Both the position numbers and the translations under genes were made by a program. This document shows positions 1 to 64,000 of a stretch of DNA of 64,000 nucleotides, piece after piece (position 1 is the stretch's first letter; each line of letters starts with the position of its first letter). The stretch lies in NCBI GenBank assembly GCA_947561715.1, contig OX387199.1:19969001-20033000 (forward strand), read 5' to 3'. The notes under the pieces are model-generated. The model had not been told where the DNA came from. It saw only the letters and a program-made list of their open reading frames with translations, and searched no databases. This DNA is from Ascidia mentula (taxonomy: Eukaryota > Chordata > Ascidiacea > Phlebobranchia > Ascidiidae).

Positions 1-3000
1 ATTAGTGGGCACCAAATGTACCAAAGTAGTTGTTATGTTCTGTATCCATTGTGCGTCATGCACCCAAAAATGTCTTAAGCGTATGACAAATGCAATAATT
101 AATTTCTACGGTAAAAATTTAAACACAAATGGGGAACAAGGATTCCCTTCACAAAAAAATGGGGAAATGAGAGAAAAAGGGTTAAGAACAACCACATTAT
201 AATGCTGATCGCCCAGATGAACCAAATCTCTATTTTATTTGAGAGTAGGCTAATTAGTGTACCTGGTGGAACCATTTTAGTGGCAAAAACCATTGCGAAA
301 TGGACAGGACTAATTTGTTCTTTGAAAGTGGCTTCCGACCATAATAAATGAACAAAGAAACACACATCAAATATTGCAAAACGTGATTCATGTGCGATTG
401 CCAAAGTTACCGGCAAAACGCTAATTTACAATCAACGGTTTTCCTTTGTCCTTCTGTTTTGTAATGTGACTTAAACGAGTGAACAACACCGCTGTATTGT
501 TTGCCAAACTTCGGAGAACTAATAACATAACTTTTTTAAACATAGGAGGCGATTGAACAATACCGTCTGTGAGTCATATATGCGTATTTTATGACGTGTT
601 GATATTTTTTAACTCACTGTGCCATGGACAAACATGATGGCGTATGACACAAATGTACCGCCTACATGTAAAGCCAGACAAGATCAACGTATGGATGACA
701 AGGTTCCTAAATCAAAACGTTACTTATTTAACCATGTTCGTTTGCAGAAGATTCAGTAATGTTCGCATTGCTTATTTCAAGACAAAGTGCGCTATTTAAT
801 CCACGTATTCCTTAAAACAAGCAACAAGAGTTGCTAATAGGCAGTCATGCTTAGCCAAAACAGACTGAAGTCCAACAAATATCGATACATCAACAATTCT
901 GTCTCAGAAATTAGTCCACTGTGGATTGATGTTTCGCATCTTGAATGGCGTTGGACAGAAACCGTAGCAAAACTGCAAAAAGAAAAGTTATGAACAAAAT
1001 GATGATTTCATCTTTTGTAAAGGAAGGTGCTGATATGGTGTGTGTAGTTCATGTTCTATGTGTCATCGGGTAAATCCTCGCGTCGGTCTTGAGGTTTTGC
1101 AGCATTAACATGATGTCAGAAGGTGGTCCATTGAGGGTTTTTGGTGTCTTTTTTATGAGATTACTACACAACTTTCGATATCGCCAACAACCGTGTTGGA
1201 TTCGCAACATTGGCACCAGTTTCAAAGTGATGGTTATCAAGCCCAACCTGAGCAGCAATAATTTAAAAGCTCTGTCGTTGAAATACAAATGAAAAGAAAT
1301 AAAGAAATATATAAAATCAAGTGTAAATAATACATTTCCATTGCAAGTGATTTTTCTTAAATAACTCCAACCATTACTATATTGTTAGAACACTATTCTT
1401 TATCGCACGCATTCATTACTGACTCAAATTTAGACATTTAAAGTCAGATGAAGAAAATATCCACAGAAGTTGGTGGTAGAATCGCGCGGATTAAACAGTC
1501 GGTGAGTATTGTGTTGACTTTTTCTCTTCAAAAGGATGTAGCGTTACGTATGAAGAATTTGTGCAAAATTTAATTTTAACCTTTGGCGGAGTTCCCGCTC
1601 CGCTTTCCCGCAGATTTTTGTTTCAACACTCGGTCTCCCTCTTCAACAGCGTGACGACTGATTTCCTGCTCAGCGTTCAAATATTTCCATAATCATGACG
1701 ATGAAACAATGGTTGCAAGTTGATTGACAGCTTCGTGCGCGGTGCTCCTCGCCTGCCAGTCTGGCAAATTTAATGTTGGCTTCTTGACTGGATAACCAGT
1801 ATGGTTTTATCGGTGCCCATGACATTTATATTTATTGTTTATGTTCAAGTACTTTTGTGCAAAATTAAAATGATTCGGTGAATATTCGTGTTTGGATGAA
1901 TATTAAAACATTCGGCGAATCCCGGACTTACAGAATACCCGAAAAACTATGTGGGATAAAAATGATTACGGACAATCTTGCTGAACGTGGGCAAGTTTTG
2001 AAACTGCCAAAAAGTTTTGCTGCGCAGATAAAATAGCTGCGTGTGCAAGAAAAGGTAATGGTTTCGTTCGATGTGTTTTTCTCTTCACCAACGTACTGGT
2101 AATGTTGGCCGCGAACGTAGCAGCAGAAAGATTACGAAACGACTTAACATTGGAACAACGTTGCTCGTTGCTGTCACACATTGTAGATGTCTTCGTTTGG
2201 TCCTGAATGCCACCTACCTTTGTCTCAGAGGTGATCCTTTACGGCAATATGATCTCCCCTTTCCGTTGCAGTTGCGAACTTCATCATGGTCGGTTGAACA
2301 TTGGACAACGTTAGTCAGCCCTCCTCAGTTTTGGAGACGTTTTGTTGGTGACTCATTCGTTGTCAAGCAACGAGATGACGTGCAGTCGCTGCTCTCACAT
2401 CTCTGTTGAACCAAGTTCACAATGGAGTGCGAGCAAGGCAGTAGATTGTCTTTATTCGATGTTTTTGTTCGAAGAGAAGAGCGGACAACCCTTTCCACAA
2501 GTGTATGCAACAAATAACTCATTCCGACAGATATTTGTCGTTCGGCTCGGCGCACCCGATCGCCAAAAGGCGCGATTTTTTTACCACACTGAAGCTGAAT
2601 TATTAATAACAAATGGCGTGAAGCGACAACAAGAGATGGGTTACGCTGTAGAACGCAAACAAATATTCCCGTTTTTTCTCGAACGTAACCATGCCTTGTC
2701 GAGGAGGTGTGTTGAGGGCGAAATACGGGTGCAGTTGCTCAGCGATCAAACACAGGAAAGAACCTGTTTTATTTTCGTCATGACGACAATTCAAACAAGA
2801 ACCAACTCATACAGGTGAGGAATTCCTCAACAAACTTATGAAGTGTGGTTGGAACTCGTTCCCCATCAGAAGTCACAAGTTCAAGAATACACACTCTTTT
2901 ACCCTCTCAACACTGTGTTTATTGATAACAACAACAAGTAGCATAAAATATGCGCAAGCAGCAAACATTCAACAAAACGATTAAATTTTGGTGAAAGTTT

Positions 3001-3786
3001 AAATTAGCCGCGAACGAATTATGATTTGATTTACACAGAAAGTTTGTCCTGCCAAAAATTTTACGACATCTTTTTTTGCATTAAAATATAATTATCAATG
3101 ATATACAAAATACACAGGGCTAGGTTTATGTACAAAGCGTGTGAGAGGAGGTTTTGAGGGGATGTTTTCAACTTTTTTTGGTGATATTTAAAGGTAGCAG
3201 ACTATATTTTCATGAGCCAATGGTTTGTATTCCATGAGTTGATTACATGGAATGTTTTCAACATCATATTTACAAGTAAACGTTGATCCAGAAACAAAAC
3301 GTAGTAGGGAAGTCAGTGGAAGCAAGGGGAATCATAGTTTTGTCCAAAATAATTCTACCCAAGTTGATGTCAAGCTTTCCAACACTCACACATGATAAGA
3401 GTGTCCATGTGTTGGATGACGTGTGAACGTGGACGACGAGTCCGATCAACTCAACACGTGACTCAAACCATAGTACATAAAAGGAAGAACCACCACATAC
3501 AACCAATAAACAAAACTAAGCAAACGGAGTGCGTACATCAACCCAAATTCACGTATTTTCGTTCTTTTGTTTGGGTCTCTCGTCAAATATGTTACTTTGT
3601 CCTACTTGTGAGATTTTTAAATGGAAAGTTGTAACTTGGAATATCAATTTTGTGTTGTAGTAACTTTGCCATCACAAACTAAATATTATTCTACACATGG
3701 AAGGTACGCGTGACGTCAAAAAAATATTCGGTTCTATCCATTCGATGCCAGGAAAAAAACACATTTTGCACGAACTGAATGCAAGG
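1..3786. other. Intergenic region 3' of gene A
   Basis: No host gene recognised. It holds a plus-strand Penelope-like relic (about 1,930-2,580). The remainder is AT-rich sequence with only short frames. A frame on the minus strand at 99-416 is open in units 1-3, but its differences between units are almost all amino-acid changing, so it does not look selected. Confidence 0.6.
1930..2580 (+). mobile_element. Penelope-like element relic, reverse-transcriptase part (unit 1)
   Basis: Pieces in more than one frame recall Penelope-like reverse transcriptases: ERGQVLKLPKSFA, MVSFDVF, LAANVAAERLR, LEQRCSLLSHIVD and NATYLCLRGD. The reading is degenerate in this copy. It lies opposite in strand to the receptor genes, and homologous copies lie at the same place in every unit, so it inserted before the duplications. 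Confidence 0.6.
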
Positions 3787-3792
3787 TTTATT
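3787..3792 (-). terminator. Poly(A) signal of gene A overlapping the stop codon
   Basis: On the minus strand the stop TAA runs directly into ATAAA, so a canonical AATAAA shares its first base with the last base of the stop codon. If used, the 3' UTR would be only some 15-30 nt. Confidence 0.7.
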
Positions 3793-6700
3793 TACAGATC
3801 AGTTTCTGCTTCAACCACATGTAAGTTTTCTCGGTTAGCAACCACACCCACATTTTCCTGTTGCTCTTCCTGTGGTTGGCGTCTGAAAACGGTACGTAGG
3901 CCATCCCGGACTCTATCATAAAGCAGTTTCGGTGCGTTGGAATAGATGAGGGGATTTAGAGAGCTGTTTATGGGAAGCAGGATGATTGCTGACACAGCGT
4001 ACATCACTGGAGGCATAGGGACTCCACCGATGTTTACAAATGACATAATGGAAATTGGAACCCAGCAGAGAAAATCGGTAACTATCAGTCGGATGATTTT
4101 CTTTTGTATTTCTGCCGAAACAGCTTTAATGGTATAATATGTCTGCAAATACGAATGTGCTTACCTTTGTTTTGTCTTGCCGCCCTTCCACTTCTTAGTC
4201 TCTTGTTCACTTGCCTGGCACTGGCAGTTGGCTTCTTGTAAATCCAAATATACGTAATTGCAACGAACATGAAGGCCAGGAAGTTAAGAGTAATAATAGC
4301 GATTGAATATCCCCATGCCTTGTCGTTGGTTGTTACATACAGTTTGCTGATGCAAACACTGCTGCTGCTGTAATATCTACACATAAACAATTTTGTTGAT
4401 AAAAAATTCAAATTTTGCACAATTAAAACACAAACCCCAAATATCCAGAAATATCAAATAGCCCAGTGTAATTGTAATCCTCAAGAATATCCATAAAATC
4501 CATCCAGGAATTAGCATCATTTACTCGCATGAGGGCAGTGTTGAGTTCTTGGGAATCATTGCTTGTGAAGTTGTGTTGGAAAGTTACAAATCGATCCATG
4601 AAGTTATTCATACCTGTATACGCAACGTTATAGTGTGATTCGAAACTGGTATCACCACCAACATCAACAACAATTTCTTACTAGAAAAGTCGACTGCAAC
4701 ATTGTCATAAAACGGATTCTCATTCATCCAAGCTTTGGTTTCAAACAAATGTTGAAGTTGAGTTGTGAGTGGAATAAAAGCAATTGTACACGAGAATGCC
4801 CAGGAGAGGATAATGGAAAGGATGACAGTTTTCAATTCCGGTTTCAAGGATGCATCGTGTGGCTGAAACAAAAGAGAACATTAACCTGTTTTCATTAAAA
4901 GCAATAAGTTTGCAAGCTGGGCGTTCCTTTCAATTCGAAGGACGGGGAATGTAGTTGTCAGTTCGAATTCCATCGGACTGAAATTGCTACCTCTTTCTTT
5001 ACCCACTTTCCGGAGATAAAAGATTTCCAAAGAGAAAGTTGTCATAAAGTTTTGGAACGGCCCGGCACCGGTTCAACGAAGTTGGCTATAGCTGACTTAA
5101 CCAAATACAATTGTTTCACTTACATTTTTCACAGCAAACAGTCGGAATATGGTCAACAGAACCATTGTGAACACCGATGTTTCGCTAGTAAGCAAAGCCA
5201 ATACCCCCATGGTGGTGCAACTTCCGCTTGATCTCCAAATAAGGTCATTGGCACAATAATTTCCAGAGTATCTGACACCAGCGGCTCCCAGCATGATGAG
5301 ATAAACTCCCATGAGTAGATCGGAAACGGATAGATTCAAAACGAGCAGATGGTTTGTGCGAAATGCAGAAGATTGTGATTGTGTCGTCGCCAACGTTTTG
5401 CCTTCCATCACCATGACAACCTCAAAACAAATTGTAGGAATATAACACGTGTTCTTATTGCGCAACAAAGACAAAACTTAGTTTAATTTACCAAATTTCC
5501 GGCAATGGCGAGCATCCCCATTATCCACACAATGGCTCGTAGAAATGGGTTCGCAATCAACTCGTATCGTGATGAAAATATGTTTTCGTTCATCACTTTT
5601 GTATTTGTTGGGCACTCGTCTGACCAATCAGAGCAGTCGCCGACTCCATTGAATTTCTATGTAAAGTATATGAATTTAAGAAAACTTTGTAGTTAAGTTG
5701 GTCATATTGGTGTCCGTAAACAACATAATGCGAAATTACTATTTCGTATGTAATTGGTGAACAACGGATCTATGAAAATTGGATAAAAAATGTGAACTGC
5801 TATATACATCTGTAGTTTTGTGTACGTGGAAGGCGTGTGACGCGATAATTGGCCAGAAATCTGGCGACAACAATAAGAATAAATTTGTAAACTGGCTGCC
5901 AACGTTAAGGTGTGCTTGTGTGATTAGGTGTAAAGAACATGATTTGTGAAGTGGGTCGTAATTAAATTAATGTTGTTTGGTGTTGGTTCTTTTAACATTA
6001 GGTGTTTCTATATAATTTTTTACTTTGACGTCAGTTTATTTAATTATAAAAGTAGCCACCTATATAGTTTGGCTCCCAACTTTTGTTTTGGCGGTGAGCC
6101 GTTAGTGCAGGGTGAACTGAGCGTTTACTATGGTTGGGGTTGGAGGCCCGGGTTAGTACATGGATCAGATTGGGAGTAAACGGTTGGTTTACATCAGAGA
6201 TACACAAATATTTTTAGTGCTAAATTAGAAACCTTAAGTTCAAAAGGCTTTTTTCAGACCTATTTTGTGACCGAATCGCACATTTTAATCCCGCGAAGAT
6301 CAACTTTAAATGTTTGGCGCCAAAAAAACGGAGAAAAGGTCTTCCTAAATCGGTTCAAAAACTTCCATACCCGGCATCCCAATAACTTTTGTCCTAATTC
6401 GGGATCGCTGAATTAATTTCGGTCACAACAGTAACATGCACGGAATCAAAACATCTTTGCCACAGGACACAAAACTTTAAATATTGTTTACATGTGTTTA
6501 CCTTCTCCTTCTTAACGAACAATGGATCTTTATTTTCGCAGTAAAACCTTCCGTCATTTCTGCAGTTTATTTCGTCACTTTGATCATCGCAGTTAATTGT
6601 GAGGTCACAAACATCCGATTTGTTGACAGAAATCTGTCGCAAAAGTCTGTAAAATACTTAAACCGTCTTTGTGGTTAACTGTGTGCGAAAGATTCAACAA

Positions 6701-9700
6701 AGGGCATTATGACAAACAATACTGAACAAAAGACACCGATACCTATTTGCTTTTTATAGTTGAAATAACGCTTCGAAGTGATTTTTTTCCCAACTCTTGT
6801 AATTAAGGTCTTAATTTTTTTTTGGTTTTTTATGACATCAAATAACTTTACTTTGGCTCCATTTAACGTTGGACAGTAGAATCTTCCTTCCTTTGAGCAC
6901 AATTCATCTGGATATTCGTCACTTTCATCCTTGCAATCGATGAAACCGTCGCATACTTTGGACATAGGAATATTGAGAAGTCCGTCTTTTGTGTCGCAGT
7001 GTTTCCGATGTTTGCAAAGTTGAGGATCTTCATCGTGGTCGAATGATTGACCAGTGTCAAGATTATACATCCGAAAATCGCAATCTCGCCTCCCATCGCA
7101 CAGTAGTTTGTTGTCGAACAACCTCCCCCAACCCCGCAACACTCCATCCTGTGTAAAACACATCACGTGCGAACGATTTGTTGCTCATGCTGGAAGGAAT
7201 ATTTTTGTTATTATTTTAAACGAATCTTTTTTTAGTTGTTGTCAGGCTTGTCGGGATTTCCTGGCTGTTACATTAGGTTTTATCATAAGTTTTGAAGCAG
7301 GTATCGCCATAAAATCTGTGAATATGGTGGCGACAGACCAGCAGGGACCGTAAACTTTTGTTACAAACTCAATTTGTCAGGTAACAGTCCCCATGTGGGA
7401 CACCTAGAAACGTCCAACGACACATCGACAGCAACAGACGTCATGGCAGCAAACTTGTTCGAGACTTTTATACCTGGGAATGTGATCACTATGTGATTGT
7501 CATGCATTACAAGATGTTTATTTTTTAAGTTTTGTTAAAGTTTTTACAATCAGGTATAAAAACATAGAAAATAGCAAAATAAGCTTGACGAACAAATACA
7601 ATTTGTGACGAAAGCGAGAATTAACTCTTAAACGTGTGGCGACGAAAATTGACTTTTCACGCCGCTCCCCTTGCAAAATCTCGTTGGAAAGGTTTCGCAG
7701 TTTTCTCAGCATTTTACAATTTTCTTTCTGCCGTGGTCGCAGTACTTTGAGTATCCACAAAAGGGATATGTTTGCTGGTATTTTGTGCCAATTGTTAAAA
7801 ATGTGGGTATTACATATCAGTACTACATGCCGTGTTGGGTGGTTTAGTGCAACCCAAATACCACATAAATTCCAGCCATTTCAACGTTGCACAGGAAACG
7901 TCTGGGGAACTCGGTACAAACACGAGTTCCAAATGTTAACGACCTTGAAGGTATTTCTTTAGTAATGTAATAGGATTTTGTAAATAATTATTATCACGTA
8001 TAATTGAAGTCTTGCACGGCGAAAGCCATATCCACCCTAGAGAAGCCGAATGCCACGCGCTTTGAAGGAATTAGTTGAACAATGTGTTTTGTAGCAACGA
8101 AGTAGGTGTAGTGTGGTTATTGTGCATGATGTCACTGAATGTTCCTCACCAGTATGTAACAACTTCTGTACAACGTAATCTTTGCACAAGCACTTAAAGT
8201 GCATATGAACACGGTCATGGCAACTTTGCGTAAAACTACTACAACCAACTTATATCCAAAGTTTTTCGGTTCTACGTCAACTTAACAATGTAGAAAACTA
8301 CACGAAAACTGGCGGCGACTAAAAATCGTAAACCTTTTGCACTGTGGCGAAATTAACATCATACAAGGCACTCGCGTCGAAAAAATGCATTGTTTAGATA
8401 GGAGAAGGCGCCTTTTATTGCAGATATCAAATAGTTTCAAACATAGAAGAATAAACAGATTACGTTACGTCAAAGGTCAGGACAGGGTTTTACATCACAC
8501 AAAAATATGTCACTGTGACGTTACAAACCAAAGGATTTATTGTCCCTAATTATCTGAAGACCAAAGGGTATAGCAGCAACGACATTACTCTGTACATCGA
8601 TGAGACGGGGTTGGTGCGTTTTTTTGCTCAGTGACATTACATGACGCCATTTTTTGGTAACTTTAACTTTCCTCTTTGCATTGACTTTAATTTGAAAATG
8701 ATTCCAGCATCATTTCTAGTTTTTGTGGTTGATTGTGGCGAATTAAATGAATCATTTATGACTCTTTTGGTCGGCCTTTCCTGGCGGTAGTTTAGAAAAC
8801 AACAGAAACCAAACCTTTGAGGTAACAAATATTCACGTTTGGCGAAATAAGCCAAAATCTTTGTAAGTTGCTGTAATAATTACGTTTGACTGCGTAAACA
8901 TTGTTGTAAACTTTTGGTTAAACTGGAATTTGTCCAGCAAGTGAGTAAGTACATTGTGTTGGTAAGAACCTACAAATGTACGTAAACATCTAAACCATTT
9001 TCATTAAGTCTGGTAAACTTATTTTCGACTAAACAATAAGTTATGCATTCTCACTTACACACCACCACTCCCCCTGTATGTAGTTGGTTGTTGTTGTTGT
9101 TGAACAGTCGTTCTTCACTTCCTCATCCACACTGAAAATATTTGAATGTTTCGCGTTTATTTTGTAATTAAAAACTCCAATTGAATGCAGATGACGTTTA
9201 CTTGCGACTCCTGTAGTAATTAAATATAAGTTTATAAAACCCATACACGGGAATTCAACTCAGAACTGACCCAAAATTACTAAAAGACGCTTAACCTCCA
9301 AACACGTACTGCAGGGTAGCTGAGGAACAGACAAACATATTGAAACCACTTTAACCCAACAACAAAAACTGTCAATTTGATAATATGCAAATTTCCTATG
9401 GTTGGTCGCCCATTATTGAAACACTGTTGCGCCACAAAGGTTGCTCGCTTGTAGTGCCCAGATATGCGATGACTTGCATTTAAAGTCTTTTTCGACTGCA
9501 ATACTTTGTATTCAAGGTCTAAAACGCCTATATGATGTCATGACAGTAAAGGAAAGGGTATTTTCCTGCAGCGGCGAAATACATCATTTTAAACTGCATT
9601 ATTCATGAGTCATGCCAATGAAAACCAGTCAGGCCAATGAAAACAAGTCATGTTGTAATTACAGACACTTAACAAACTTTACACTTTTGCAAGTCATAGA

Positions 9701-12700
9701 ATTCTGGTGACGCATTTGATGTCAATGGTTTTAATTCAAAGAATAAACTAATGCTTTATCACTTACTAATGAAACTTGCCACAATCTTTAGTTTTCCCAG
9801 GTTGACAAAAACATTCGTCACTTTTGTCGGGACAGTCGATGACGTCATCACAAACACGTGACCTTGAGATGATCATAGGGTCATTTGTACATTGGAAGCA
9901 TGAACGATGATTAAAGGTCCCCAAACTTCGAATGTCTCTGCAAATGACACAAGTCAATTCCGTCTTATCTCAGCGAAAGGTATTTTCAACCAACCACAAC
10001 AGTTCACAAATACCTGACATCTCCATTTTCCGAGGTGTAACACAAATCAGATTTATCATCACAATCTGCAATGCCGTCCCATAGAAACATCTGCGGAAGA
10101 TTGCAATTCCTGCCATTCCGAACACATTTGAATCCATGTCCATTATTCCAGTGTTGGAAAGCTGGACAGTCATTGCAAGGATCGCCATCACAAACAGTCG
10201 AACGTTTCCAACAAGCTGAATTTGGACACTGGAAGTGGGAGGGGCAGAGGTACTCACATGGGTAATTCCCCAGACAATGAGCAAGCTTGTCGCAGATTTC
10301 ATTTTTTGAGTTACAGGAAAAGTTGGCTGCATCCAATGTGTTATAGCAGACTCCATTATTGTCGAAACAATTACAACGTGATTTTGAACTAAATAAAATT
10401 AATAGTTATTAGCATCAACGAAATAAAAGGTATTTTCAAAACTACAAAAATACCCTATATTGTTGTTGCTACATTGCTGATGGAATTTCCCATTACAACT
10501 GGCTTCATCACTCATATCAGGGCAATCTATGACGTCATCACAAACACTTGACCTTGAGATGATCATAGGGTCATTTGTACATTGGAAACACAGTCGTTCG
10601 TTCAGCGATGAAGAAGTACGAATATCTCTGCAATAACAAATTTGTTTATAGATGCCATACTTTGCCCATAGGCAGGCAGGTAAAGCTGTTTATTTTATTA
10701 TTTATAACCATTAATATAAACAGCAAAGCTCATATGACTAAAATTATATTTTACTCTAAAACGTTTCTTTTTTTTCGTTTTCACTTCAATAGGAAGAATG
10801 ACGCCAGTAGAAACACTGATCCAATGGCGTTAAAAGAAAATATGATATATAGTAAGATAAGAAACACATTGGGAGAGGGAAGTCTGGGGCAATGCTGGCA
10901 AGTACGCATATGCAAAACACAATCAAAAACAAAATACCTGACATCTCCATTCTCCGAGTTGTAACACAAATCAGATTTATCATCACAATCAGAAATGTCA
11001 TCCCATAGAAACATTTGCGGAAGATTGCAATTCCTTCCATTCCGAACACATTTGAATCCATGTCCATTATTCCAGTGTTGGAAAGCTGGAATGTCATTGC
11101 AAAGATCCCCATCACAAACAGTCGAACGACACTGGGAGTGTAAGGGGCAGATGTCACACAGTGTTTTGCCAACACATTGGATTATTCCTTTGCAAAACTC
11201 TTCCACTCTTAGGGCGCATACTTTGTTTGAATCCCAGTAGTCAAAGTTGTTGTCGCAACTGTAACAAAAGTAAAGTATTACATCATATAACAAAAGTTTC
11301 GGGAGATTTGTGTTAGTTATTGTTTAGACATGAAGAGTCGTCATGGCTGATAATCAGTAAATGTTAGGTTTGGTTTAAATAAACCAGATTAATGCCAATT
11401 AGTCATGCACGACTGGGTATGCAGATATGTGAATAACAATACACAGCCTACAACTTTACAATAATTTTGCCTTACATCTGCTGAAAAATAACTAATAGAT
11501 AGTAAATTGGAGCAAATATTATAAATTCTGTGACCTGCAAACAGTTCACCATCCGGTCAGGCAAATACTTCTACTTTGTGGTGACGATACAGCCACCGTC
11601 ATCCGTTGGGCACCAAACTAGGTGCATCCATACGGAGAACAAGGTGGAGAAAACTATTGGAATCAGGTAATTATTCGTGTCTAGAACTCTGTCAAGCAAT
11701 GCCAAATTTATCAAATCTTTCGCGAAGATTTCTATTCCTTTGAAAGGATTTCGACAAATGTCAATGAACGAATAGCAGACGCAGGTGTAAAACCACAGCA
11801 AAACCGTAGATAAGAGCAAGACAGACGCCTGACCCGTATCTTAACCTGGGTTCAAATCCCGGTGTGGTAAAAAACGATACCGCCCAGGGGTTCCTACTGA
11901 AGCACCCACGCAACCAGTTGCCACAAGTCAACTATGCGGGACGACGGCATTACCGAAATGCGGTCCCACAAACGGAAGAAAACATCGTACTGCCACACTA
12001 CATACGCAACAGCATGCGTGCAACTTAAATGTCTATGTGGCAAAGTACATTCAAAATACCGCTGCTCCGAATGAAGTCCATGCCGTTGTAACAACACAAA
12101 CTACCAGTGTTTCTAGATTAGTTGTACATGCGGCACATGTTATAATCTTATGCTCGGAGGGAAGGTTATGTATAACTATAAGGCAATAGTACCAAATGAC
12201 TTCAACACAAACTGTGTTTAGCAAGCCAATATCTTGTACTTATGTTATTGTTTTTGACAATGGCGCCTATACTTCGTACACACGTGTGTGCATTTAGAAC
12301 TTCCGGTCCCATCCTCTTAAACTCGGTGCCGCTGCAGGGATTGGTTGTTACGGCGCGGTCAACATCCCCCTCTTTGCTGACTTCTCACCTCTCTCTCCTT
12401 TTAAAACAATATTACAATTCCCGCATATACTGGAAACCCCCACAACACACAAACTATCCCTCATTGAATATAACCTTGAAATTCCCTGAATTACTCGACC
12501 TTTGAATTAGAAACACGCACTTCTTAATATGAACACCACCTACTTTGACACCGCTGCACACCTAAACTTTCCCAAACTCCCACAACCTAATACACCCTAC
12601 GCCACAACCCTTACAGCCCTTCTGGACACCTCTATGTTGCCATACCATTTGAAAAACCCGTAACTGAATCCGCAGTGACCCTTGCCCTTCGAACAACATC

Positions 12701-14743
12701 CCCCAACACCTCATCAAGTCCCTCAAACAGTCCATAAACTTTAAGCTCACTATCCAGCGGAACAGGGACAACACCTTTCCTAAAGGCGTCCTGGCCGATG
12801 TCAAACATTCTATAAATATAAATTAATCAACCTTCTTGCTAGTGGGTTGTGTATAACATAAGCAGCGCCTGCTAAAAATCTTTGCCATGAAACTTGCTAG
12901 TGGGTATACACTTTTCGTGCGCTACAATAGTCAATTCCTTAACACAAAGTTTTAGAAGTAAATGCATCATGATTGTAACGTATTTATGCCACCTACAATA
13001 TCAAAAATATTTTAACTTTCGTTTTGCGCCAAAAATGTTTTCCTGAGGAAACCTGATACTGGTAATAAAGGCACAGAGTGTTGCTCCTTTTTATTACCGA
13101 ACAATTCCACATGTTTGATCATAATGCCACGTGTTGCGCAACATTGCCACGTGTTTGGTAACAATGCTCAATTTAAGAACAATATGTTAAAAAGGCGAAG
13201 ATGAAACGTTTGGTTTTCTCGGTAAATTAGGCAAAAAGATTGACGATTACGTTTATTTAAAATTTTGTAAATTCAGCGCAAACAGTGATGCGATCGACGT
13301 GTTGGCCAACCCTGATATAAACCTTTACTAATCTTAGATTCACTCTTTGCGCCACCCACTGGCCACTTCTTACCTCAACAATATTATTGTTACGTGTGAG
13401 TGTTTCGCAATCAATAATTCCCTTGCAATATTGAAAACACTTCTGAACGCGTGGGGTTTTGAAACTTTTTTATTTGACTCGACTTTATTATAAACTGTTC
13501 AAATTCATTATTTTAACAAAAGTCAAACCCTGATAACATCGTCTATTGGTTGGTCAACACTAATATAACGAAAGTAGGGAACATATTTAAGTGCTTTCAC
13601 CTCATGTAAGGACTGGTGAGGTTTTCAGGATAAGTGGAATAATTGGCTGGTTTCTCATCACTTCCGTCCCAGCAAACGGGACCACGACCATCACAAAACC
13701 ACCCAGCCCTCACCTCCCTCCCATCATCGCAAGTGAACTCTGCACAAAACACATGAACGTAAATCGATTTGAAATCCATCAAAATCTGTATAACGAACCA
13801 ATATATTAACTTAATTGAGAGTTTATGATTTGTAAAAAAATACTTACTTTCGCTGAGTCTACGCCGTGCTGAAGCAATTGTGATGAAGGAGAGCAGGATT
13901 CCAACCACCTTCAACCAATACCTGATAAAAACACAAAGAGTTTATATCTTGCAATGATATGTTTCTCTATATCAGGGGAATGACGTCATCGTGGATTTTA
14001 GTTTTACAAACTTTAAGTCCAAGGAACACTGCAATGTTATTTAAGTTAACTGGCAATCGCCAAAATTTCAATGGCTTTTTAGATAAACTGTCGTCACTTT
14101 TTTCTCTTTGTTTATATTCTCATCCGCTTGTTGCCCAAACGCCTAGAAAAAATATATAGTAGTTTTCGCCAAATCTCGACAGCTCACGGAACCATTCATA
14201 TTTTTGGTAAAGCTTATTCAAAGGGTTTTATTGTCATTTTTGGAAAACAAAAGTTTAATCTCCACACTGGTTCAACCATATGTCTGATTTAAATACTTTA
14301 AACCACGTTTAGTTTACTCCAGCCGATCCTTCGGGATTCCATCGCTTACAAAAAGCGGGCAAATATTGTAAGCGACCGTTTATAACCAGCTATCAGATTA
14401 TGACCAGGCATAATTTTTGTGCGATATTAAGAAACCAAAATTTCGTCCCGGGCTCACAATGCGCCTGGAGAAGCGTGAGACACCGTGCAAGTCAATAACA
14501 CCTGTTAACTCGATCACAGACCAGACCGAGTTTAACCTCACTCAAAAACCGTAGCCCCAACCATGCTGAGACTTGCATAGAAATAACAGACTAAAATTTA
14601 AACGTCCACGCTTAGACATGGTAGATATTTATGTTCATTATTATCCCGCGCCAAAAATAAGCCTATTTATTGTTTTTCCGACAAAAATGTGGCTATATTT
14701 TACCATGTTAAGAATTTAAATAGCTCACAAACCTTGCTCCCAT
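3792..14743 (-). CDS. Gene A: LDLa-repeat, LGR-like seven-transmembrane receptor (16 exons, 1039 aa)
   Basis: Probable plasma-membrane G-protein-coupled receptor with a Ca-binding LDLa ectodomain; ligand unknown. Exons 5' to 3' on the minus strand: 14733-14743, 13848-13921, 13601-13739, 10938-11258, 10454-10627, 10014-10388, 9767-9937, 9059-9131, 6852-7148, 6502-6633, 5492-5656, 5124-5420, 4682-4862, 4436-4613, 4165-4376, 3792-4111. They sum to 3120 nt with agreeing phases and GT-AG borders. The start is the ATG of MGAR, opening a signal peptide with core VVGILLSFITIASA. About nine LDLa or LDLa-like modules follow (e.g. VCDGFIDCKDESDE, NCDDQSDEINC, DCSDWSDEC). A hinge of about 20 residues leads to TM1 (GN near its end); TM2 has NLSVSDLLMG, TM3 has FRL in place of D/E-R-Y, TM6 has FLCWVPI, TM7 has NPLIY. 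No leucine-rich repeats are visible. ECL2 is about 95 residues. The tail ends ETDL. Family placement is by motif only; related mollusc GRL101-type receptors are known. Confidence 0.85.
4911..5050. repeat. Possible tRNA-derived SINE fragment in the TM3-TM4 intron
   Basis: The 261-nt intron contains a segment with a B-box-like core (AGTTCGAATYCC near 4960), the T-arm signature of tRNA-derived SINEs. No clear A box or tail was found. The same segment sits in the introns of gene B (near 24,500) and gene C (near 43,415), so it predates the duplications. Weak evidence. Confidence 0.3.
5492..5656 (-). other. Exon of gene A joining the last LDLa half-module to TM1
   Basis: This exon fixes the domain layout. 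It starts in phase 0 with KFNGVGDCSDWSDEC (end of an LDLa module), continues through about 20 hinge residues including NPFLRAIVW, and ends in TM1 at AGNL, whose next residues VVMVME come from the following exon. Glycoprotein-hormone and relaxin receptors place leucine-rich repeats here; this gene has none. Equivalent exons: 25032-25196, 44362-44526, 63546-63710. Confidence 0.85.
7149..9058. other. Large intron of gene A (1.9 kb)
   Basis: Lies between the Thr-rich exon (9059-9131) and the LDLa exon (6852-7148), which join in phase 0. I see no exon with consistent splice sites inside it. It contains AT-rich sequence shared with units 2 and 3, of which roughly 0.6 kb is missing here relative to those units after about 8,765. 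A further exon cannot be excluded by eye. Confidence 0.5.
11560..12030. repeat. Composite interspersed repeat with a tRNA-like T-arm (unit 1)
   Basis: In the intron between the first LDLa exon and the first large Cys-rich exon. At 11846-11862 a 5-bp stem closes a seven-base loop TTCAAAT, the form of a tRNA T-arm, but no complete cloverleaf surrounds it. The left part shares words (TTGGGCACCAAAC, CTTCCACTTTG) with the palindromic element in unit 3. Homologues lie at about 31,650-32,225 and 49,870-50,425, so it is old. Best read as a SINE joined to or nested in a non-autonomous DNA element. Confidence 0.45.
12240..12830. repeat. Degraded C-rich repeat of unknown class in a gene A intron
   Basis: A pyrimidine-rich stretch on the plus strand with an open minus-strand frame at 12,562-12,804 (related frame at 32,763-33,005). 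Another minus frame in unit 2 reads VTADSVTGFPNGMAT, which looks coding-derived, but I recognise no family. Probably a decayed mobile element; unclassified. Confidence 0.3.
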
Positions 14744-23328: not shown

Positions 23329-23334
23329 TTTATT
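23329..23334 (-). terminator. Poly(A) signal of gene B overlapping the stop codon
   Basis: Same arrangement as gene A: AATAAA begins on the last base of the TAA stop codon. No other AATAAA lies closer to the coding end. Confidence 0.7.
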
Positions 23335-42245: not shown

Positions 42246-42251
42246 TTTATT
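42246..42251 (-). terminator. Poly(A) signal of gene C overlapping the stop codon
   Basis: AATAAA overlaps the TAA stop by one base, as in the other copies, implying a very short 3' UTR. Confidence 0.7.
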
Positions 42252-48200: not shown

Positions 48201-51200
48201 CCAGCAAGTGAGTAAGTTCATTGCTTGGTAAGAACCTACAAATGTACGTAAACATCTAAACCATTTTAATTAAGTCTGGTAAACTTATTTCCCACAAAAC
48301 ACTAAGTTATGTATTCTCACTTACGAAACACCTCCACCTCCCCTGTATGTAGTTTGTTGTGGTTGTTGAGCAGTTGTTCTTCACTTCCTCATCAACACTG
48401 AAAATATTTGAATGTTTCGCGTTTATTTTATATTTAAAAACTCCAATTGAATGCAGATGATATTTACTTGCGACTCCTGTAGTAATTAAACAAACGTCTT
48501 TAAAACCCATACATGAGAATTCAGCTCAGAACTGACCTAAAATTACGAAAATACGCTTAACCTACAAACACGTACTGCAGGGTAGCTGAGGAACAGACAA
48601 ACATATTGAAACCACTTTAACACAACAACTAAGACTGTCAATTTGATAATATGCAAATTTCCTATGGTTGGTCGCCCATTATTGAAACACTGTTGCGTCA
48701 CCAAGGTTGCCCGCTTGTGGTGCCCAGATATGCGATGACTTGCATTTAAATTCTTTTTCGACTACAATACTTTGTATTCAAGGTCTAAAACGCCTTTATG
48801 ATGTCATGACAGTAAAGGAATGGGTATTTTCCTACAGCGGCGAAATACATCATTTTAAACTGCATTATTCATGAGTCATGCCAATGAAAACAAGTCATGT
48901 ATAGTATTTACAGACACTTAACACACCTTACACTTTTGCAAGTCATAGAATTCTGGTGACGCATTGGATGTCAGTGGTTTTAATCCGAAGAATAAACTAA
49001 TGCTTTATCACTTACTAATGAAACTTGCCACAATCTTTTGTTTTCGTAATTTGACAAAAACATTCGTCACTTTTGTCGGGACAGTCGATGACGTCATCAC
49101 ATACACGTGACCTTGAGATGATCATAGGGTCATTTGTACATTGGAAGCATGAACGATGATTAAAGGTCCCCAAACTTCGAATGTCTCTGCAAATAACACA
49201 AGTCAATTCCGTCTTATCTCCACGAAAGGAATTTTCAACCAGCCACAACACTTCTCAAATACCTGACATCTCCATTCTCCGAGGCGTAACACAAATCAGA
49301 TTTATCATCACAATCTGCAATGCCGTCCCATAGAAACATCTGCGGAAGATCGCAATTCCTTCCATTCCGAACACATTTGAATCCACATCCATTATTCCAG
49401 TGTTGGAAAGCTGGAATGTCATTGCAAATATCGCCATCGCAAACAGTCGAGCGACACTGGGAGTGGAAGGGGCAGATGTCACACAGTGTTTTGCCAACAC
49501 ATTGGATTATTCCTTTGCAAAACTCTTCCACTCTTAGGGCGCATACTTTGTTTGAAGCCCAGTAGTCAAGCTTGTTGTCGCAACTGTAACAAAAGTAAAG
49601 TATTACGTCATACAACAAAAGTTTCGGGAGATTTGTGTTAGTTAATGTTTAAACATGGAAGAGTCGTCATGGTTGATAATCAGTAAATGTTATGTTTGGT
49701 TTTAATAAACCAGATAAATGCCAATTAGTCATGCACGACTGGGTATGCAGATATGTGAATAACAATACACAACCTACGACTTTACAATAATTTTTCCTTA
49801 CATCTGCTGAAAAATAACTTTTAGAAAGTAAATTGGAGCCAATATTATAAATTGCAAACAGTTGATCACTGTTTCGTCTCTTTGTAAGGTCTCCACAGTG
49901 CAGCTTGGTGCGACTGATGCTGACGATCATGCCGACCATCCGGTCAGGCAAATACTTCCACTTCGTCGTGACTATACAGCCACCGTCATCCGTTGGGCAC
50001 CAAACTAGGTGCATCCATACGGAGAAAACAAGGTGGAGAAAACTATTGGAAACAGGTAATTATTCGTGTAACTCTGTCAAGCAATGCTAAATTTATCAAA
50101 TCTTTCGCGAAGATTTCTATTTCTTCGAAAGGATTTCGACAAATGTCAATGAACGAAAAGCAGCTGCAAACGAGGCAGCAGACGCAAAACCACCGCAAAC
50201 CGTAGATAAGAGCAAGACAGATGCCTGACCCGTATCTTAACCTGGGTTCGAATCCCGGTGTGGTAAAAACCGATACCGCCCTGGGGTTCCTACTGAAGCA
50301 CCCACGCAACCAGTTGCCACAAGTCAACTATGCGGGACGACGGCATTACCGAAATGCGGTCCCACAAACGGAAGAAAACATCTTACGGCCACACTACATA
50401 CGCAACATCAGGCAAGCAATTTAAATGTCTATGTGGCGAAGTACATTCAAAATACCGCTGCTCCGAATGAAGTCCATGCCGTTGTGACAACACAAACTAC
50501 CAGTGTTTATAGATTAGTTGTACATGTGGCACATGTTATGATCTTATGCCCGGAGAGAAGGTTATGTATAACTATAAGGCAATAATACCAAATGACTTCA
50601 ACACAAACTGTTTTTAGCAAGCCAATATCTTGTACTTATGTTATTGTTTTTGACAATGGCGCCTACTTCGTACATACGTGTGTGCATTGAGGACTTCCGG
50701 TCCCATCCTCTTAAACTCGGTGCCGCTACAGGGATTGGTTGTTACGGCGCGGTCAACATTCCCCTCTTTTCTGACCTCTCACCTCTCTCTCCTTTTAAAA
50801 CAATATTACAAACCCCGCATATACTGGAAACCCCCGCAACACACCAACTATCCCTCATTGAATACAACCTTGAAATTCCCTAAATTACTCGACCTTCGAA
50901 TTAGAAACACGCACTTCTTCATATGAACACCACCTGCTTTGACACCGCTGCACACCTAAACTTTCCCAAACTCCCACAACCTACTACACCCTTACTCCAC
51001 AACCCTTACAGCCCTTTTGAACACCTCTATGTTGCCATACCATTTAAAAATCCGTAACTGAATCCGCAATGACCCTTGCCCTTCGAACAACATCCCCCAA
51101 CACCTCATCCAATCCCTAAAACAGTCTATAAACTTTAAGCTCGTGATCCAGCGGAACAGGAAATCACCTTTCTTGAAGGCGTCCTGGCCGATGTGTCAAA

Positions 51201-53217
51201 TATTTTATAAATATAAATTAATTAACCTTCTCTCCACCCCATTCTTACATCAACAAAACTTAATCCTGTACCATTGCTTAATTTTTTTTTTTTTTGCAAT
51301 TCACGTTTAACATAGCTTACTTTTTCTGACGTTTTTTTCTCTTATCCTCTTTACTCTTCTCCCACATTTTTCTTTTAATACGATTTTTTCTTTTTTTGCC
51401 ATCGTTTATATTATTTCTGTTTCCATTGCTTTGTGTAAATTTTTGTGTGATATTCGTTGTGGCAGATTAGTTTTCCAGAATACAAAAATACACAGTGGCC
51501 ATCTGTCTGCAGCTCACAGCATTCATATTATTGGCCCCACTTTGCTTGTGTATAAGATAAGCAACGCCTGCTAAAAATCTTTAACATGAAACTTGCTAGT
51601 GGGTATACACTTTTCGTGCGCTATAATAGTCAATTCCTCAATACGACGTTTCAAAAGTAAATGTATTATGATTGTAACGTATTTACACGTGTTTGGTAAT
51701 AATGCCACGTTTTACGTAACATTGCCACGTGTTTGGTAACAATGCTCAATTTAAAAACAATGTGTTAAACAGGCGAACATTAATGAAACTTTTACTTATC
51801 ACGGCAAATTATGCAAAAAGATTAACGATTACGTTTATTTAAAATTTTCAACAACATTATTGTTACGTTTGAGTGTTTCGCATTCAATAAATCCCTTGAA
51901 ATATTGAATACACTTCTAAACGCGTGGGGTTTTGAAACTATCTTATTTAACCCTCTTTATTATAAACTGTTCAAAATTCGTTATTTTAATAAAAGTCAAA
52001 CCCTGATAACATCGTCTATTGGTTGGTCAACACTAATACAATGAATGTAGGAAACATATTTAAGTGCTTTCACCTCATGTAAGAACTGGTTGGGTTTTCA
52101 GGATAAGTGAAAAAATTGGCCAGTTTCTCATCACTTCCGCCCCTGCAATCGGGACCACCATCACAAAACGATTGAGCCCACATCTCCATCCCATCATCGC
52201 AAGTGAACACTGCACAAAACACATGAACGTAAATCGATTTGAAATCCATTAAAATCTGTGTAACGAAGCAATATATTAAATTAATTGAAAGTTTATGTTT
52301 TGTAAAAAAATACTTACTTTCGCTAGGTTTATACAGTGCTGAAGCAATTGTGATGAAGGAGAGCAGGATTCCAACCACCTTCATCCAATACCTGATAAAA
52401 ACACAAAGAGTTTATATCTTGTAATAATATGTTTCTTTAACTCTGGGGAATGACATCATCATGGATTTTAGTTTTACAAACTTTAAGTCCAAGGAACACT
52501 GCAATGTTATTTAAGTTAACTGGTAATCTTCAAAATTTCAATGGCTTTTTATATAAACTGTCGTCACTTTTTTCTGTTTGTTTTTATTCTCATCCGCTTG
52601 TTGCCCAAAGGCTTAGAATAAATATTCAGTAGTTTTCGCCAAATCTCGACAGCTCACGGAACCCTTCATATTTTTTGATGAAACTTTCATTGAAAGGGTT
52701 TTATTGTCATTTTTAATAAACAAAAGTTTAACCTCCACACTGGTTCAACTATATGTCTGATTTAAATACTTTAAACCACGTTTAGTTTACTCCAGCCGAT
52801 CCGTCGGGTTTCCATCGCTTACAAAAAGCGGGCAAATATTGTAAGCGACCGTTTATAACCAGCTGTCAGATTATGACCAGGCATAATTTTTGTGCGATAT
52901 TAAGGAACCAACATTTCGTCCCGGGCTCACAATGCGCCTGGAGAAGCGTGAGACACCGTGTAAGTTAATAACACCTGTTAACTAGATCACAGGCCAGACC
53001 GAGTTTAACCTCACTCTATAAACCGTAGCCCCAACCATGCTAAGACTTGCAAAGAAATAACAAATTAAAATTTAAACCTCCACGCTTAGACATGGTAAAT
53101 ATTTACGTTCATTTTTATCCCGCGCAAAAATTATGCTTATTTATTGTTTTTCCGACAAAAATGTGTCAATATTTTACCATGAACAGAATTTAAATAGCTC
53201 ACAAACCTTGCTCCCAT
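42251..53217 (-). CDS. Gene C: shorter LDLa-repeat, LGR-like seven-transmembrane receptor (14 exons, 852 aa)
   Basis: Third tandem copy. Exons 5' to 3': 53207-53217, 52318-52391, 52074-52209, 49263-49583, 49016-49186, 48325-48397, 45581-45868, 45232-45363, 44362-44526, 43581-43877, 43139-43319, 42895-43072, 42624-42835, 42251-42570; total 2559 nt, phases agree. It lacks the 174-nt LDLa exon and one of the two large Cys-rich exons of A and B, removing 183 residues without a frame change because the lost exons are symmetric (phase 2/2). The remaining large exon looks chimeric: its 5' half matches the first, its 3' half and the following intron match the second. The first LDLa module has GGSDE in place of DGSDE, and a later exon is nine nucleotides shorter. 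A 391-bp palindromic element sits in the TM1-TM2 intron (484 nt against 71 in other copies). The 7TM core, NPLIY and ETDL end are intact. Confidence 0.85.
43953..44343. mobile_element. Palindromic MITE inserted in the TM1-TM2 intron of gene C
   Basis: The 391-bp insertion is bounded by a 12-bp direct repeat AAACTTAGTTAA (43,941-43,952 and 44,344-44,355). Its ends form inverted repeats of about 90 bp, sharing CACTGTTTCGACCTGTAAGG and the word GGCACTGTGCTAGCTGG. No transposase is encoded. Genes A, B and D have an empty 71-nt intron here. Related fragments occur elsewhere in the window. Confidence 0.85.
49870..50425. repeat. Composite interspersed repeat with a tRNA-like T-arm (unit 3)
   Basis: Homologue of the repeats in units 1 and 2, here with loop TTCGAAT in the T-arm hairpin at 50242-50258, closest to the tRNA consensus. 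No complete tRNA fold is present. Confidence 0.45.
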
Positions 53218-61743: not shown

Positions 61744-61749
61744 TTTATT
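61744..61749 (-). terminator. Poly(A) signal of gene D overlapping the stop codon
   Basis: AATAAA overlaps the TAA stop by one base. It is kept although the sequence immediately 3' of this gene has diverged more than in the other units. Confidence 0.7.
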
Positions 61750-63710
61750 TATAGATCGGTTTCTGCTTCAACCACATGTAAGTTTTCTCGGTTAGCAACC
61801 ACAACAACATTTTCCTGTTGCTCTTCCTGTGGTTGACGCCTGAAAATGGCACGTAGGCCATCCCGGACTCTATCATAAAGCAGTTTCGGGGCGTTGGAGT
61901 AGATGAGGGGATTTAGAGAGCTGTTGATGGGGAGCAGGATAATTGCTGACACAGCGTACATCACTGGAGGCATAGGGACTCCACCGATGTTTACAAATGC
62001 CATGATGGAAATTGGAACCCAGCAGAGAAAATCGGTAATTATCAGTCGAAGGATTTTCGTTTGCATTTCTGCCGAAACAAACGGCATTAATGGTATAATA
62101 TATCTGCAAATACGAATGTGCTTACCTTTGTTTTGTGTTGCCGCCCTTTCATCTCGTGGCCTCTCGTTCACTTGCCTGGCACTGGCAGTTGACTTCTTGT
62201 AAATCCAAAAGTACGTAATTGCCACGAACATGAAGGCCAGGAAGTTTAGAATAATAATAGCGATTGAATATCCCCATGCCTTGTCGTTGATCGTTACATA
62301 CAGTTTGCTGATGCAAACACTGCTGCTGCTGTAATATCTACACATAAACAATTTTGTGGCGAAAAAATTGAAGATTTTGCGCAAATAAAAACGAACCCCA
62401 AATATCCAGAAATATCAAATAACTCAGTGTAATTGTAATCCTCTAGAATATCCATAAAATCCATCCAGGAATTAGCATCATATACTCGCATAAGGGCAGT
62501 GTTGAGTACTTGGGAATCGTTGCTTGTAAAGTTGTGTTGGAAAGTTACAAATCGATCCATGAAGTTATTCATGCCTGTATACGCAAAGCTAGTTTAATTC
62601 AAAATTGGTTTCAACACCTACATCTACGACAATTTCTTACTAGAGAAGTCGACTGCAACATTGTCAAAAAACGGATTCTCATTCATCCAAGCTTTGGTTT
62701 CGAACAAATGTTGTAGTTGAGTTGTGAGTGGAATAAAAGCAATTGTAAACGAGAATGCCCAGGATAGGATAATGGAAAGGATGACAGTTTTCAATTCCGG
62801 TTTCATGGATGCATCGAAAGGCTGAAACAAAAGAGAACATTAACGTGTTTTCATTAAAAACAATAAGTTTGCAAGCTCGGTGGTTATTTCAAATCGAAAG
62901 ATGGGGAATGTAGTTGTCAGCTAGAATCCCATCGGACTGGAAATTGTTTTCTCTAACTGTAGTTCCCAAATTGGGCAAAACTGCGTCATTTTAATAATAT
63001 AAGTTTTACTTTCGTTTCTCATGTCAGGCTTTAATTCCAGCGATAGCTGTGAGAGTGATAATAAATACGTTATAATAGAAAAAAAAATAATAGAAAGTTA
63101 TCATAAACTTTTGAAAAGGGACGTCACCTGTTCAACGAAGTTGGCAATAGCTGACAAAATACAATTGTTTCACTTACGTTTTTCACAGCATACAGTCGGA
63201 ATATGGTCAACAGAACCATTGTAAACACCGATGTTTCGCTTGAAAGCAAAACCAATACCCCCATAGTGGTGCAACTTCCGCTTGATCTCCAAATAAGGTC
63301 ATTGGCACAATAATTTCCAGAGTATCTGACACCAGCGGCTCCCAGCATGATCAGATAGACTCCCATGAGTAGATCGGAAACGGATAGATTCAAAACGAGC
63401 AGATGGTTTGTGCGAAATGCAGCAGATTGTGATTGTGTCGTCGCCAACGTTTTGCCTTCCATCACCATGACAACCTCAAAACAAATTGGAGCAATATGTA
63501 AACACGTGTTCTTATTGCGCCAAGACAAAACTTAGTTTAATTTACCAAATTTCCGACAATGGCGAGCATCCCCATTATCCACACAATGGCTCGTAGAATT
63601 GGGTTCGCAATCAACTCGTATCGTGATGAAAATATGTTTTCGTTGATCACTTTTGTATTTGTTGGGCACTCGTCTGACCAATCAGAGCAGTCGCCGACTC
63701 CATTGAATTT
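61749..63710 (-). CDS. Gene D (partial): 7TM exons of a fourth LDLa-type receptor; 5' part beyond the window
   Basis: Six 3' exons of a fourth copy are visible: 63546-63710, 63178-63474, 62641-62821, 62397-62574, 62126-62337, 61749-62068, totalling 1353 nt (450 codons plus stop). They encode the last half-LDLa module (DCSDWSDEC), the hinge, all seven TM helices and the ETDL tail. The bases from 63711 to the window end belong to the next intron, so the ectodomain is outside. In-frame stops at about 62613-62630 lie in the 66-nt ECL2 intron (62575-62640), not in coding sequence. The TM5-TM6 intron is 57 nt here against 53 in A-C, a multiple of three and open, so the genomic frame reads straight across it. 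The donor after the ECL2 exon is GTTCGT instead of GTTTGT, somewhat weaker. The TM3-TM4 intron is about 95 nt longer than in the other copies. Confidence 0.8.
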
Positions 63711-64000
63711 CTATATGGAGTAAATTAAAGAAAACTTTGTAGTTAAGTTGGTCATATTGGCGTCCGTAAACAACACATTGCGAAATTACTGTCTTGCATA
63801 TAATTTGCGAACATCGAAACTATGGAAATTTGACAAAAAATATGTACTGCAAGATGCATGTGTAGTTTTGTGTACGTGGAAGGCGTGTGACGCGCTAATT
63901 GGCCAGAAAGCTGTCGACAAAAAAAAAATTGATTGGTAAACCGGCAGTTTTCATCTGGTGGCAAACGTTAAGGTGTGCTTTTGTGATTAGGTGTCAAGAA

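What the first reader, a model, noticed from the sequence alone, without database searches (positions are those of the whole stretch)
1..64000. Tandem array of four giant LDLa-GPCR genes without leucine-rich repeats
Four paralogues stand head to tail in 64 kb. Each couples 7-9 LDLa or LDLa-like modules directly to an LGR/GRL101-type 7TM domain with a hinge of about 20 residues. Known relatives (relaxin receptors, mollusc GRL101) carry leucine-rich repeats in this place. The array looks like a lineage-specific family of large surface receptors that varies its ectodomain and keeps its signalling core, as expected for sensing or recognition. The ligand and role are unknown.
Basis: partly seen in the sequence, partly recalled or inferred. 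Interest (0 to 1): 0.8.

Follow-up and report, generated by a model that had tools for sequence, protein, structure and literature searches.

The report
Sea squirt LDLa-receptor family, hugely expanded
The window holds neighbouring copies of a cell-surface receptor type already described in another sea squirt, but in this species the family appears to have grown to about two hundred genes whose outer, ligand-facing part gains and loses modules while the signalling part is kept, as one would expect of receptors that recognise many different things.

Summary
The core observation holds. The window matches Ascidia mentula (a tunicate) chromosome 3, 19.969-20.033 Mb. Three gene copies and the TM part of a fourth lie head to tail on the minus strand, about 19 kb apart. 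Each complete one joins LDLa modules directly to a relaxin-receptor-like 7TM domain through a hinge of about 21 residues; no leucine-rich repeat was found. In 4 of 23 members the Ea-TM1 intron is only 55-61 bp. Corrections: copy 1 carries a frameshifting 20-bp deletion, copy 4's ectodomain lies outside the window, and the genes are not giant (about 10 kb; 844 and 1037 aa). The architecture is known: Ciona 'LDLRR-GPCRs' (Kamesh 2008). New is scale and turnover: 226 exact matches to the family's TM6 motif (reversed control 0) against 28 Ciona genes. LDLa exon pairs are phase-symmetric, vary from one to three, and copy 3 is a recombinant between two pairs. Exons L1 and Eb evolve faster (dN/dS 0.6-0.9) than the 7TM core (0.22); the A, B and Ea exons do not stand out. 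Best guess at function: recognition receptors, perhaps on haemocytes. No ligand or expression data were available.

The parts
3792..13921 (-). Copy 1, from signal exon to stop codon; exons sig 13921-13848, L1 13739-13601, A1 11258-10938, B1 10627-10454, A2 10388-10014, B2 9937-9767, Eb 7189-6852, Ea 6633-6502, TM1 5656-5492, TM2-3 5420-5124, TM4 4862-4682, ECL2 4613-4436, TM5 4376-4165, TM6-7 4111-3792
   Evidence: Exon boundaries with AG/GT and consistent phases; exon Eb carries a 20-bp deletion relative to copy 3 and no in-phase acceptor with an open frame was found: probably a broken copy
23334..34464 (-). Copy 2, signal exon to stop; two A-B LDLa exon pairs; Eb 26757-26406; 1037 aa from the signal exon on, no internal stop
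   Evidence: Pfam 7tm_1 3.3e-18 and Ldl_recept_a 4.5e-15
42251..52391 (-). Copy 3, signal exon to stop; one A-B pair; 844 aa from the signal exon on, no internal stop
   Evidence: Pfam 7tm_1 7.5e-17 and Ldl_recept_a 5.3e-10
61749..63710 (-). Copy 4, exons TM1 to TM6-7 only; the ectodomain lies beyond the window's end
   Evidence: six TM exons open with AG/GT
49263..49583 (-). Exon A of copy 3: recombinant, 5' part like A1 and 3' part (continuing into B) like A2-B2; exchange within about 49450-49200
   Evidence: 50-bp bins from 49850 to 49451 are 92-100% identical to copy 1 A1 (the first bin, 49900-49851, 83%); bins from 49200 down are 90-100% identical to copy 1 A2-B2; between them both match
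5492..6633 (-). Last two LDLa modules (exons Ea and TM1), hinge of about 21 residues and TM1 in copy 1; no LRR found in between
   Evidence: the same junction has only 55-61 bp of intron in L009, L014, L027, L028
4436..4613 (-). Separate exon for most of an enlarged second extracellular loop (about 80 residues more than in relaxin receptor 1)
   Evidence: the RXFP1 alignment of the copy 3 TM part leaves query residues 189-271 without a counterpart

Best explanation
The window is a slice of a very large, recently duplicating tunicate family of LDLRR-GPCRs. Each gene encodes a single-chain receptor: signal peptide, LDLa modules (L1, then one to three A-B exon pairs, then Eb and Ea), a hinge of about 21 residues, and a relaxin-receptor-type 7TM, in most members read with an enlarged second extracellular loop. 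Shown: architecture, direct LDLa-7TM coupling, tandem duplication, A-B copy-number change by recombination between near-identical exons, faster change in L1 and Eb than in the core. Inferred: the LDLa array binds extracellular protein or particle ligands; binding moves the membrane-proximal LDLa, hinge and ECL2 against the 7TM, as the LDLa module of RXFP1 is needed for activation; the conserved core signals through a common G-protein route. The most likely role is recognition of non-self or altered self by haemocytes. The confidence below is for the whole statement; identity and architecture alone are about 0.95.
For: Architecture. 7TM kinship to RXFP1. Scale: 226 TM6-motif matches, 0 in the reversed control; 160 distinct TM2-3 places compiled from three capped searches, 98 on chromosome 3, same strand in 58 of 70 neighbour pairs under 60 kb apart. 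Core kept: 149 of 150 scored TM2-3 exons without a stop in each of two searches; 71 of 75 TM exons of window-type copies on the expected splice bases, three of the other four cut by the end of the stretch; dN/dS 0.22 for TM1-TM5. Ectodomain: first part of Eb 0.89, L1 0.72, recombinant exon A. Ciona LDLRR-GPCR ESTs are mostly from blood and haemocytes (PMC2396169 section 14 read). A cluster of 12 GRL101-like receptors lies in a snail region tied to schistosome resistance (PMC12297450, passages). LDLa is essential for RXFP1 activation (PMC4837482, start of abstract).
Against: No expression, ligand or population data for Ascidia. dN/dS of A (0.34-0.45), B (0.14-0.24) and Ea (0.34) is not clearly above single TM exons (0.14-0.36), and no region exceeds 1 except the 24-codon signal exon (1.86, n=5, too short to weigh). 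Eb could be read as open in 8 of 12 window-type copies, so a third may be broken. No start codon was found: ATG stands at the expected codon in 2 of 76 signal exons. In the snail locus the validated and top variants lie in a neighbouring non-receptor gene.
Confidence: 0.45

Rival explanations
1. Chemosensory receptors: a large rhodopsin-class family used to sense waterborne proteins or peptides (food, larvae, gametes).
For: Large, tandem, lineage-specific class A GPCR family. A GRL101-like receptor with six LDLa motifs is more expressed in starfish sensory tentacles than in tube feet, though not exclusive to them (PMC6267866, passages).
Against: The large cysteine-rich ectodomain suits proteins or particles rather than small odorants (inference). 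Ciona ESTs point to blood.
Confidence: 0.25
2. Self/non-self or gamete recognition: members are polymorphic and used in self-sterility or allorecognition.
For: Ectodomain turnover by exon recombination and array expansion.
Against: No polymorphism data. One paper search on allorecognition with tunicate, LDL receptor and GPCR (listing only, 6 papers) brought up nothing that links this family to it.
Confidence: 0.12
3. Hormone receptors (relaxin/insulin-like ligands) amplified without new specificities.
For: 7TM nearest to RXFP1.
Against: No LRR domain, the part to which relaxin is thought to bind with high affinity in RXFP1 (PMC4837482, start of abstract), was found; about 200 copies exceed any plausible hormone set.
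Confidence: 0.06
4. Mostly neutral segmental amplification, driven by repeats and mobile elements, with few working genes.
For: Copy 1 frameshift; 4 of 12 Eb exons not readable as open with an in-phase acceptor; similar mobile-element-like ORF remnants in the three spacers (resemblance recalled).
Against: 149 of 150 TM2-3 exons without stops; 71 of 75 window-type TM exons on the expected bases and no stop in any modelled TM exon match; TM dN/dS 0.22; subfamilies at 45-75% TM2-3 identity still open.
Confidence: 0.1

Closest known systems
Ciona intestinalis LDLRR-GPCRs (Kamesh et al. 2008, PMC2396169)
   Same: LDL-A repeats (1-10), no LRR, INSL3/relaxin-receptor-like TM region, lineage-specific expansion in a tunicate
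   Different: 14 confirmed plus 14 'unclassified LGR-like' in its text (15 and 14 in its table) against 226 TM6-motif matches here; exon-pair recombination, enlarged ECL2 and long tandem arrays are not mentioned in the passages and section I saw
Relaxin receptors RXFP1/RXFP2 (type C LGRs)
   Same: 7TM sequence kinship; LDLa in the ectodomain
   Different: RXFPs have one LDLa followed by leucine-rich repeats; here several LDLa, no LRR found, and about 80 more residues in ECL2
GRL101 (Lymnaea) and GRL101-like receptors of snails and ambulacrarians
   Same: LDLa modules on an LGR-type 7TM; in Biomphalaria sudanica also a cluster of 12 genes
   Different: GRL101 keeps leucine-rich repeats, and in the Biomphalaria cluster a C-type lectin domain

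Membership tests
Tunicate LDLRR-GPCR | One or more LDL-A repeats in the N-terminal region | tested here: met
   Pfam Ldl_recept_a above cut-off in 3 of 3 spliced members: copies 2, 3 and L014
Tunicate LDLRR-GPCR | No leucine-rich repeats | tested here: met
   No LRR model in 9 of 9 frames between Ea and TM1 of copies 1-3 or in 3 of 3 frames of copy 3's ectodomain region, without a positive control; Ea-TM1 gap of 55-61 bp in 4 of 23 members
Tunicate LDLRR-GPCR | TM region similar to INSL3/relaxin receptors | tested here: met
   Best PDB match RXFP1, E 3.6e-27
Tunicate LDLRR-GPCR | Clusters with the Ciona members in a TM tree | not testable with these tools
   No Ciona protein or genome in the collections offered; no tree was built
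RXFP / type C LGR | Leucine-rich repeats between LDLa and 7TM | tested here: not met
RXFP / type C LGR | LGR-type 7TM | tested here: met
GRL101 | LDLa array plus leucine-rich repeats | tested here: not met
   LDLa present, LRR not found

The most novel reading that the evidence does not exclude
Ascidia mentula has a receptor repertoire of about two hundred genes in which recombination between phase-matched LDLa exon pairs makes new ectodomains on a fixed relaxin-receptor-type signalling core, so that individuals carry different repertoires: a GPCR-based recognition system of haemocytes in an invertebrate chordate.
Probability: 0.2. Interest if true: 0.85.

Novelty: new member of a known kind. 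Interest (0 to 1): 0.47.

Why it matters
If size and turnover hold, this is a very large expansion of a class A GPCR family with a big modular ectodomain, in the sister group of vertebrates. It gives an orphan receptor class, known since 2008 from Ciona with blood-derived ESTs, a species in which recombination, birth and death of the ligand-facing part can be read off the genome and tested by resequencing and haemocyte RNA-seq.

Tried and rejected
Start codon: a conserved upstream ATG exon, phase-matched to the signal exon, was sought within 1.2 kb upstream of copy 1 in 10 other copies. The best candidate fits 7 of 10 but would encode one residue with a weak donor, so it is not convincing. A start codon split as AT|G over an intron was not found in the same range. 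Left open.

Counting: the 226 matches were checked for specificity. Of the 100 places listed, 77 have a family TM2-3 exon just upstream; of the other 23, two were fetched and both show the LDLa-GPCR architecture; 21 were not looked at. Of 86 TM2-3 places in the listed range, 9 lack the exact motif. So 226 is an estimate. The union of 160 places was compiled by eye. In one search, whose query reached into the introns, many rows show a stop; with exon-limited queries nearly all of these vanish.

Gene models: outside the window-type copies, 44 of 61 TM exons have both ends on the expected bases and 59 of 61 the start; the caller failed on some exons, for example the TM4 donor of L011 and L012, L1 of L009, L016, L027 and L028, one A of L028 and Eb of L017. 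I did not look into the Eb defects of L015, L020 and L023. L010 spliced automatically gave 19 stops, I think because the caller took a spurious extra L1 exon; it is used only for its three A-B pairs. One search's 'one/two pairs' lists place L015 and L020 as one-pair genes although their first pair is cut by the end of the stretch, so its 'one' rates are not used. No structure was predicted and no tree built. NCBIfam on five spacer ORFs gave two chance-level hits only. A paper search for RXFP1 with ECL2 terms returned nothing, so the role of ECL2 is recalled.

Full report
Where the window lies. The window is G000:C52:19969001-20033000 of a 195.8-Mb genome in 79 contigs. Six contig lengths (27.92, 19.88, 23.17, 22.34, 21.17 and 19.87 Mb) correspond to chromosomes 1, 2, 3, 5, 6 and 7 of Ascidia mentula kaAscMent1.1 in table 2 of PMC11109543 (passages), which gives 22.35 for the fourth and 197.0 Mb in all; the 1.2-Mb difference in total is unexplained. 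The Clavelina genome note holds none of the five lengths searched. COX1 on contig C79 is broken under codes 1 and 2 and open under codes 5, 9, 13 and 14; of the codes tried, only code 13 (ascidian) reads AGR as glycine, which falls at places I recall as conserved glycines. A spliced-leader pattern recalled from Ciona has 1,830 exact matches and none in the reversed control. I take the window to be chromosome 3, 19.969-20.033 Mb, of this phlebobranch tunicate.

What is there. The window repeats with a period of about 19 kb; aligned pieces over 200 bp are 85-97% identical. Each unit carries one gene on the minus strand. The exons in order are: signal peptide, L1, pairs A-B, Eb, Ea, TM1, TM2-3, TM4, ECL2, TM5, TM6-7. 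Mapping copy 1's exons to copies 2-4 finds AG/GT boundaries and open frames in each exon that could be mapped, with net length changes in multiples of three except in Eb; Eb of copy 2 was modelled separately, and copy 3 lacks one A-B pair. From the signal exon to the stop, copies 2 and 3 give 1037 and 844 residues. Copy 1 has a 20-bp deletion near the start of Eb that leaves no in-phase open exon. Copy 4 shows its six TM exons; the rest is beyond the window.

Domains. Pfam finds 7tm_1 and Ldl_recept_a above the cut-offs in 3 of 3 spliced members: copies 2 and 3, and L014 from chromosome 5. Acidic LDLa boxes number 8 in copy 2 and 6 in copy 3; Pfam counts 5 and 4 stretches; by eye, degenerate modules raise this to about 11 and 8. 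Several modules lack cysteines. The closest solved 7TM is relaxin receptor 1 (E 3.6e-27), then an entry named only as a family-1 GPCR (8w1z), LHCGR, FSHR, TSHR and LGR4. Query residues 189-271 have no counterpart in RXFP1: an enlarged ECL2, mostly one exon. That exon was found by similarity in 17 of the 23 modelled loci with both TM4 and TM5; the other 6 belong to the more divergent subfamilies.

No leucine-rich repeats found. Pfam at E up to 10 finds no LRR in the three minus-strand frames between Ea and TM1 of copies 1, 2 and 3 (9 of 9), nor at E up to 1 in the ectodomain region of copy 3 (3 of 3 frames). There was no positive control, and the LDLa exons, which are there, reached only E 0.21, so a lone LRR exon could be missed. 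Stronger: across 23 members the Ea-TM1 gap is 55-1551 bp, and in L009, L014, L027 and L028 only 55-61 bp, too short to hide an LRR exon; a crude LRR motif had no match in any of the 23 gaps.

How many. A 23-letter pattern for the TM6 stretch TDF[L/C]CW[V/I]P (wider by degeneracy) has 226 exact matches genome-wide and 0 in the reversed control. Three TM2-3 protein searches, each capped at 150 scored of 333-338 candidates, give a union, compiled by eye, of 160 places: 98 on chromosome 3, 27 on 7, 17 on 2, 13 on 5, and 5 elsewhere. Of the 100 TM6 places listed, 77 have one of these exons just upstream; of the other 23, the two fetched (L041, L042) also have the LDLa-GPCR architecture. Of 86 TM2-3 places in the listed range, 9 lack the exact motif. 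So 226 is an estimate. The window lies in a run of 28 places between 19.82 and 20.56 Mb. On chromosome 3, 58 of 70 neighbours under 60 kb apart share a strand.

Are they working genes. With exon-limited queries, 149 of 150 scored TM2-3 exons have no stop in each of two searches; these lists are the best-scoring part of the candidates. In 13 window-type copies, 71 of 75 TM exons sit on the expected splice bases and are open; three of the other four are cut by the end of the stretch and one is shifted by 3 nt. In the 11 other loci, 44 of 61 have both ends and 59 of 61 the start on the expected base; no TM exon match contains a stop. The weak point is Eb: of 12 window-type copies with Eb in range, 8 are open; W1, L015, L020 and L023 are not. 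A start codon was not found: at the codon where copy 3 has ATG, 2 of 76 signal exons have ATG, the rest TTG, TTA or TTT, and no convincing upstream exon was found. In L009, L012 and L024, of other subfamilies, the exon that looks homologous has an ATG (by eye).

How the ectodomain varies. In the window copies exons A and B begin and end in phase 2 with lengths divisible by three, so pairs can be gained or lost without a frame change. Copies 1 and 2 have two pairs, copy 3 one, L010 three. A1 and A2 share 223-239 bp at 93-95% identity within a gene. Copy 3's single A exon is A1-like upstream of about 49450 and A2-B2-like downstream of about 49200, so it arose by exchange inside that shared stretch. 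Nei-Gojobori ratios of means among window-type copies: TM1-TM5 concatenated 0.22 (12 sequences, 66 pairs, none with dN above dS); single TM exons 0.14-0.36; first part of Eb 0.89 (8 sequences, 11 of 28 pairs with dN above dS); rest of Eb 0.60 (10 of 28); L1 0.72 (5 sequences); A 0.34-0.45; B 0.14-0.24; Ea 0.34. So L1 and Eb are fast, and the first part of Eb also varies in length, while the A, B and Ea exons are constrained much like the core. This does not prove positive selection.

What it most likely does. In RXFP1 the LDLa module is essential for activation (PMC4837482, start of abstract). By inference, here the LDLa array replaces the LRR as the binding part, and the membrane-proximal LDLa, hinge and large ECL2 pass the signal on. 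Kamesh et al. speculated that lipoproteins or large protein complexes are the ligands and found Ciona ESTs mostly from blood and haemocytes (section 14 read). In Biomphalaria sudanica a cluster of 12 GRL101-like receptors lies in a region associated with schistosome resistance, although the validated and top variants lie in a neighbouring gene (passages). In crown-of-thorns starfish a GRL101-like receptor with six LDLa is more expressed in sensory tentacles than in tube feet (passages). I favour recognition by haemocytes over chemosensation, at modest confidence.

What is known and what is new. The architecture is known: Kamesh et al. 2008 describe 14 Ciona LDLRR-GPCRs and 14 more without recognisable N-terminal domains (passages). 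The searches for further reports (listings) brought up no paper on this family in Ascidia among those listed; none of the 15 listed of 2,829 contains the species name. Most subscription journals and all bioRxiv preprints are outside the library. New here are the size of the family, the exon-level recombination and the rate contrast for L1 and Eb. I file it as a new member of a known kind.

Noticed in passing
window 17514-17861, 37691-38104, 55571-56230 (minus): ORFs in the three spacers share stretches of sequence and resemble, from recall, the end of a Penelope-like reverse transcriptase with a GIY-YIG-type part (Pfam found nothing for 55571-56230). The insertion probably predates the duplications.
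   Followed up: partly
window 13921-13848, 34464-34391, 52391-52318 (minus): Signal-peptide exon with TTG, TTG and ATG at the same codon; genome-wide 2 of 76 such exons have ATG there. Start codon unexplained.
   Followed up: partly
L029-L031; contig C1:15.24-15.32 Mb: Recalled spliced-leader pattern in a long tandem array with a 719-720 bp period; 1,830 exact matches in the genome.
   Followed up: no
C2:8233447-8269055: Six TM6-motif places about 7.1 kb apart, a compact array of a more divergent subfamily; one member read (L041).
   Followed up: partly
window 4164-4112 (minus): Predicted intron of 53 nt between the TM5 and TM6-7 exons; two other TM introns (4681-4614, 4435-4377) are 68 and 59 nt.
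   Followed up: no
window 12001-16000, 32001-36000, 48001-52000: GC skew of -0.15 to -0.19 recurs once per unit, around the first exons.
   Followed up: no
L017:249-2627: A further set of TM exons (TM2-3 to TM6-7) just upstream of the gene that was fetched, near 17.60 Mb of chromosome 3.
   Followed up: no
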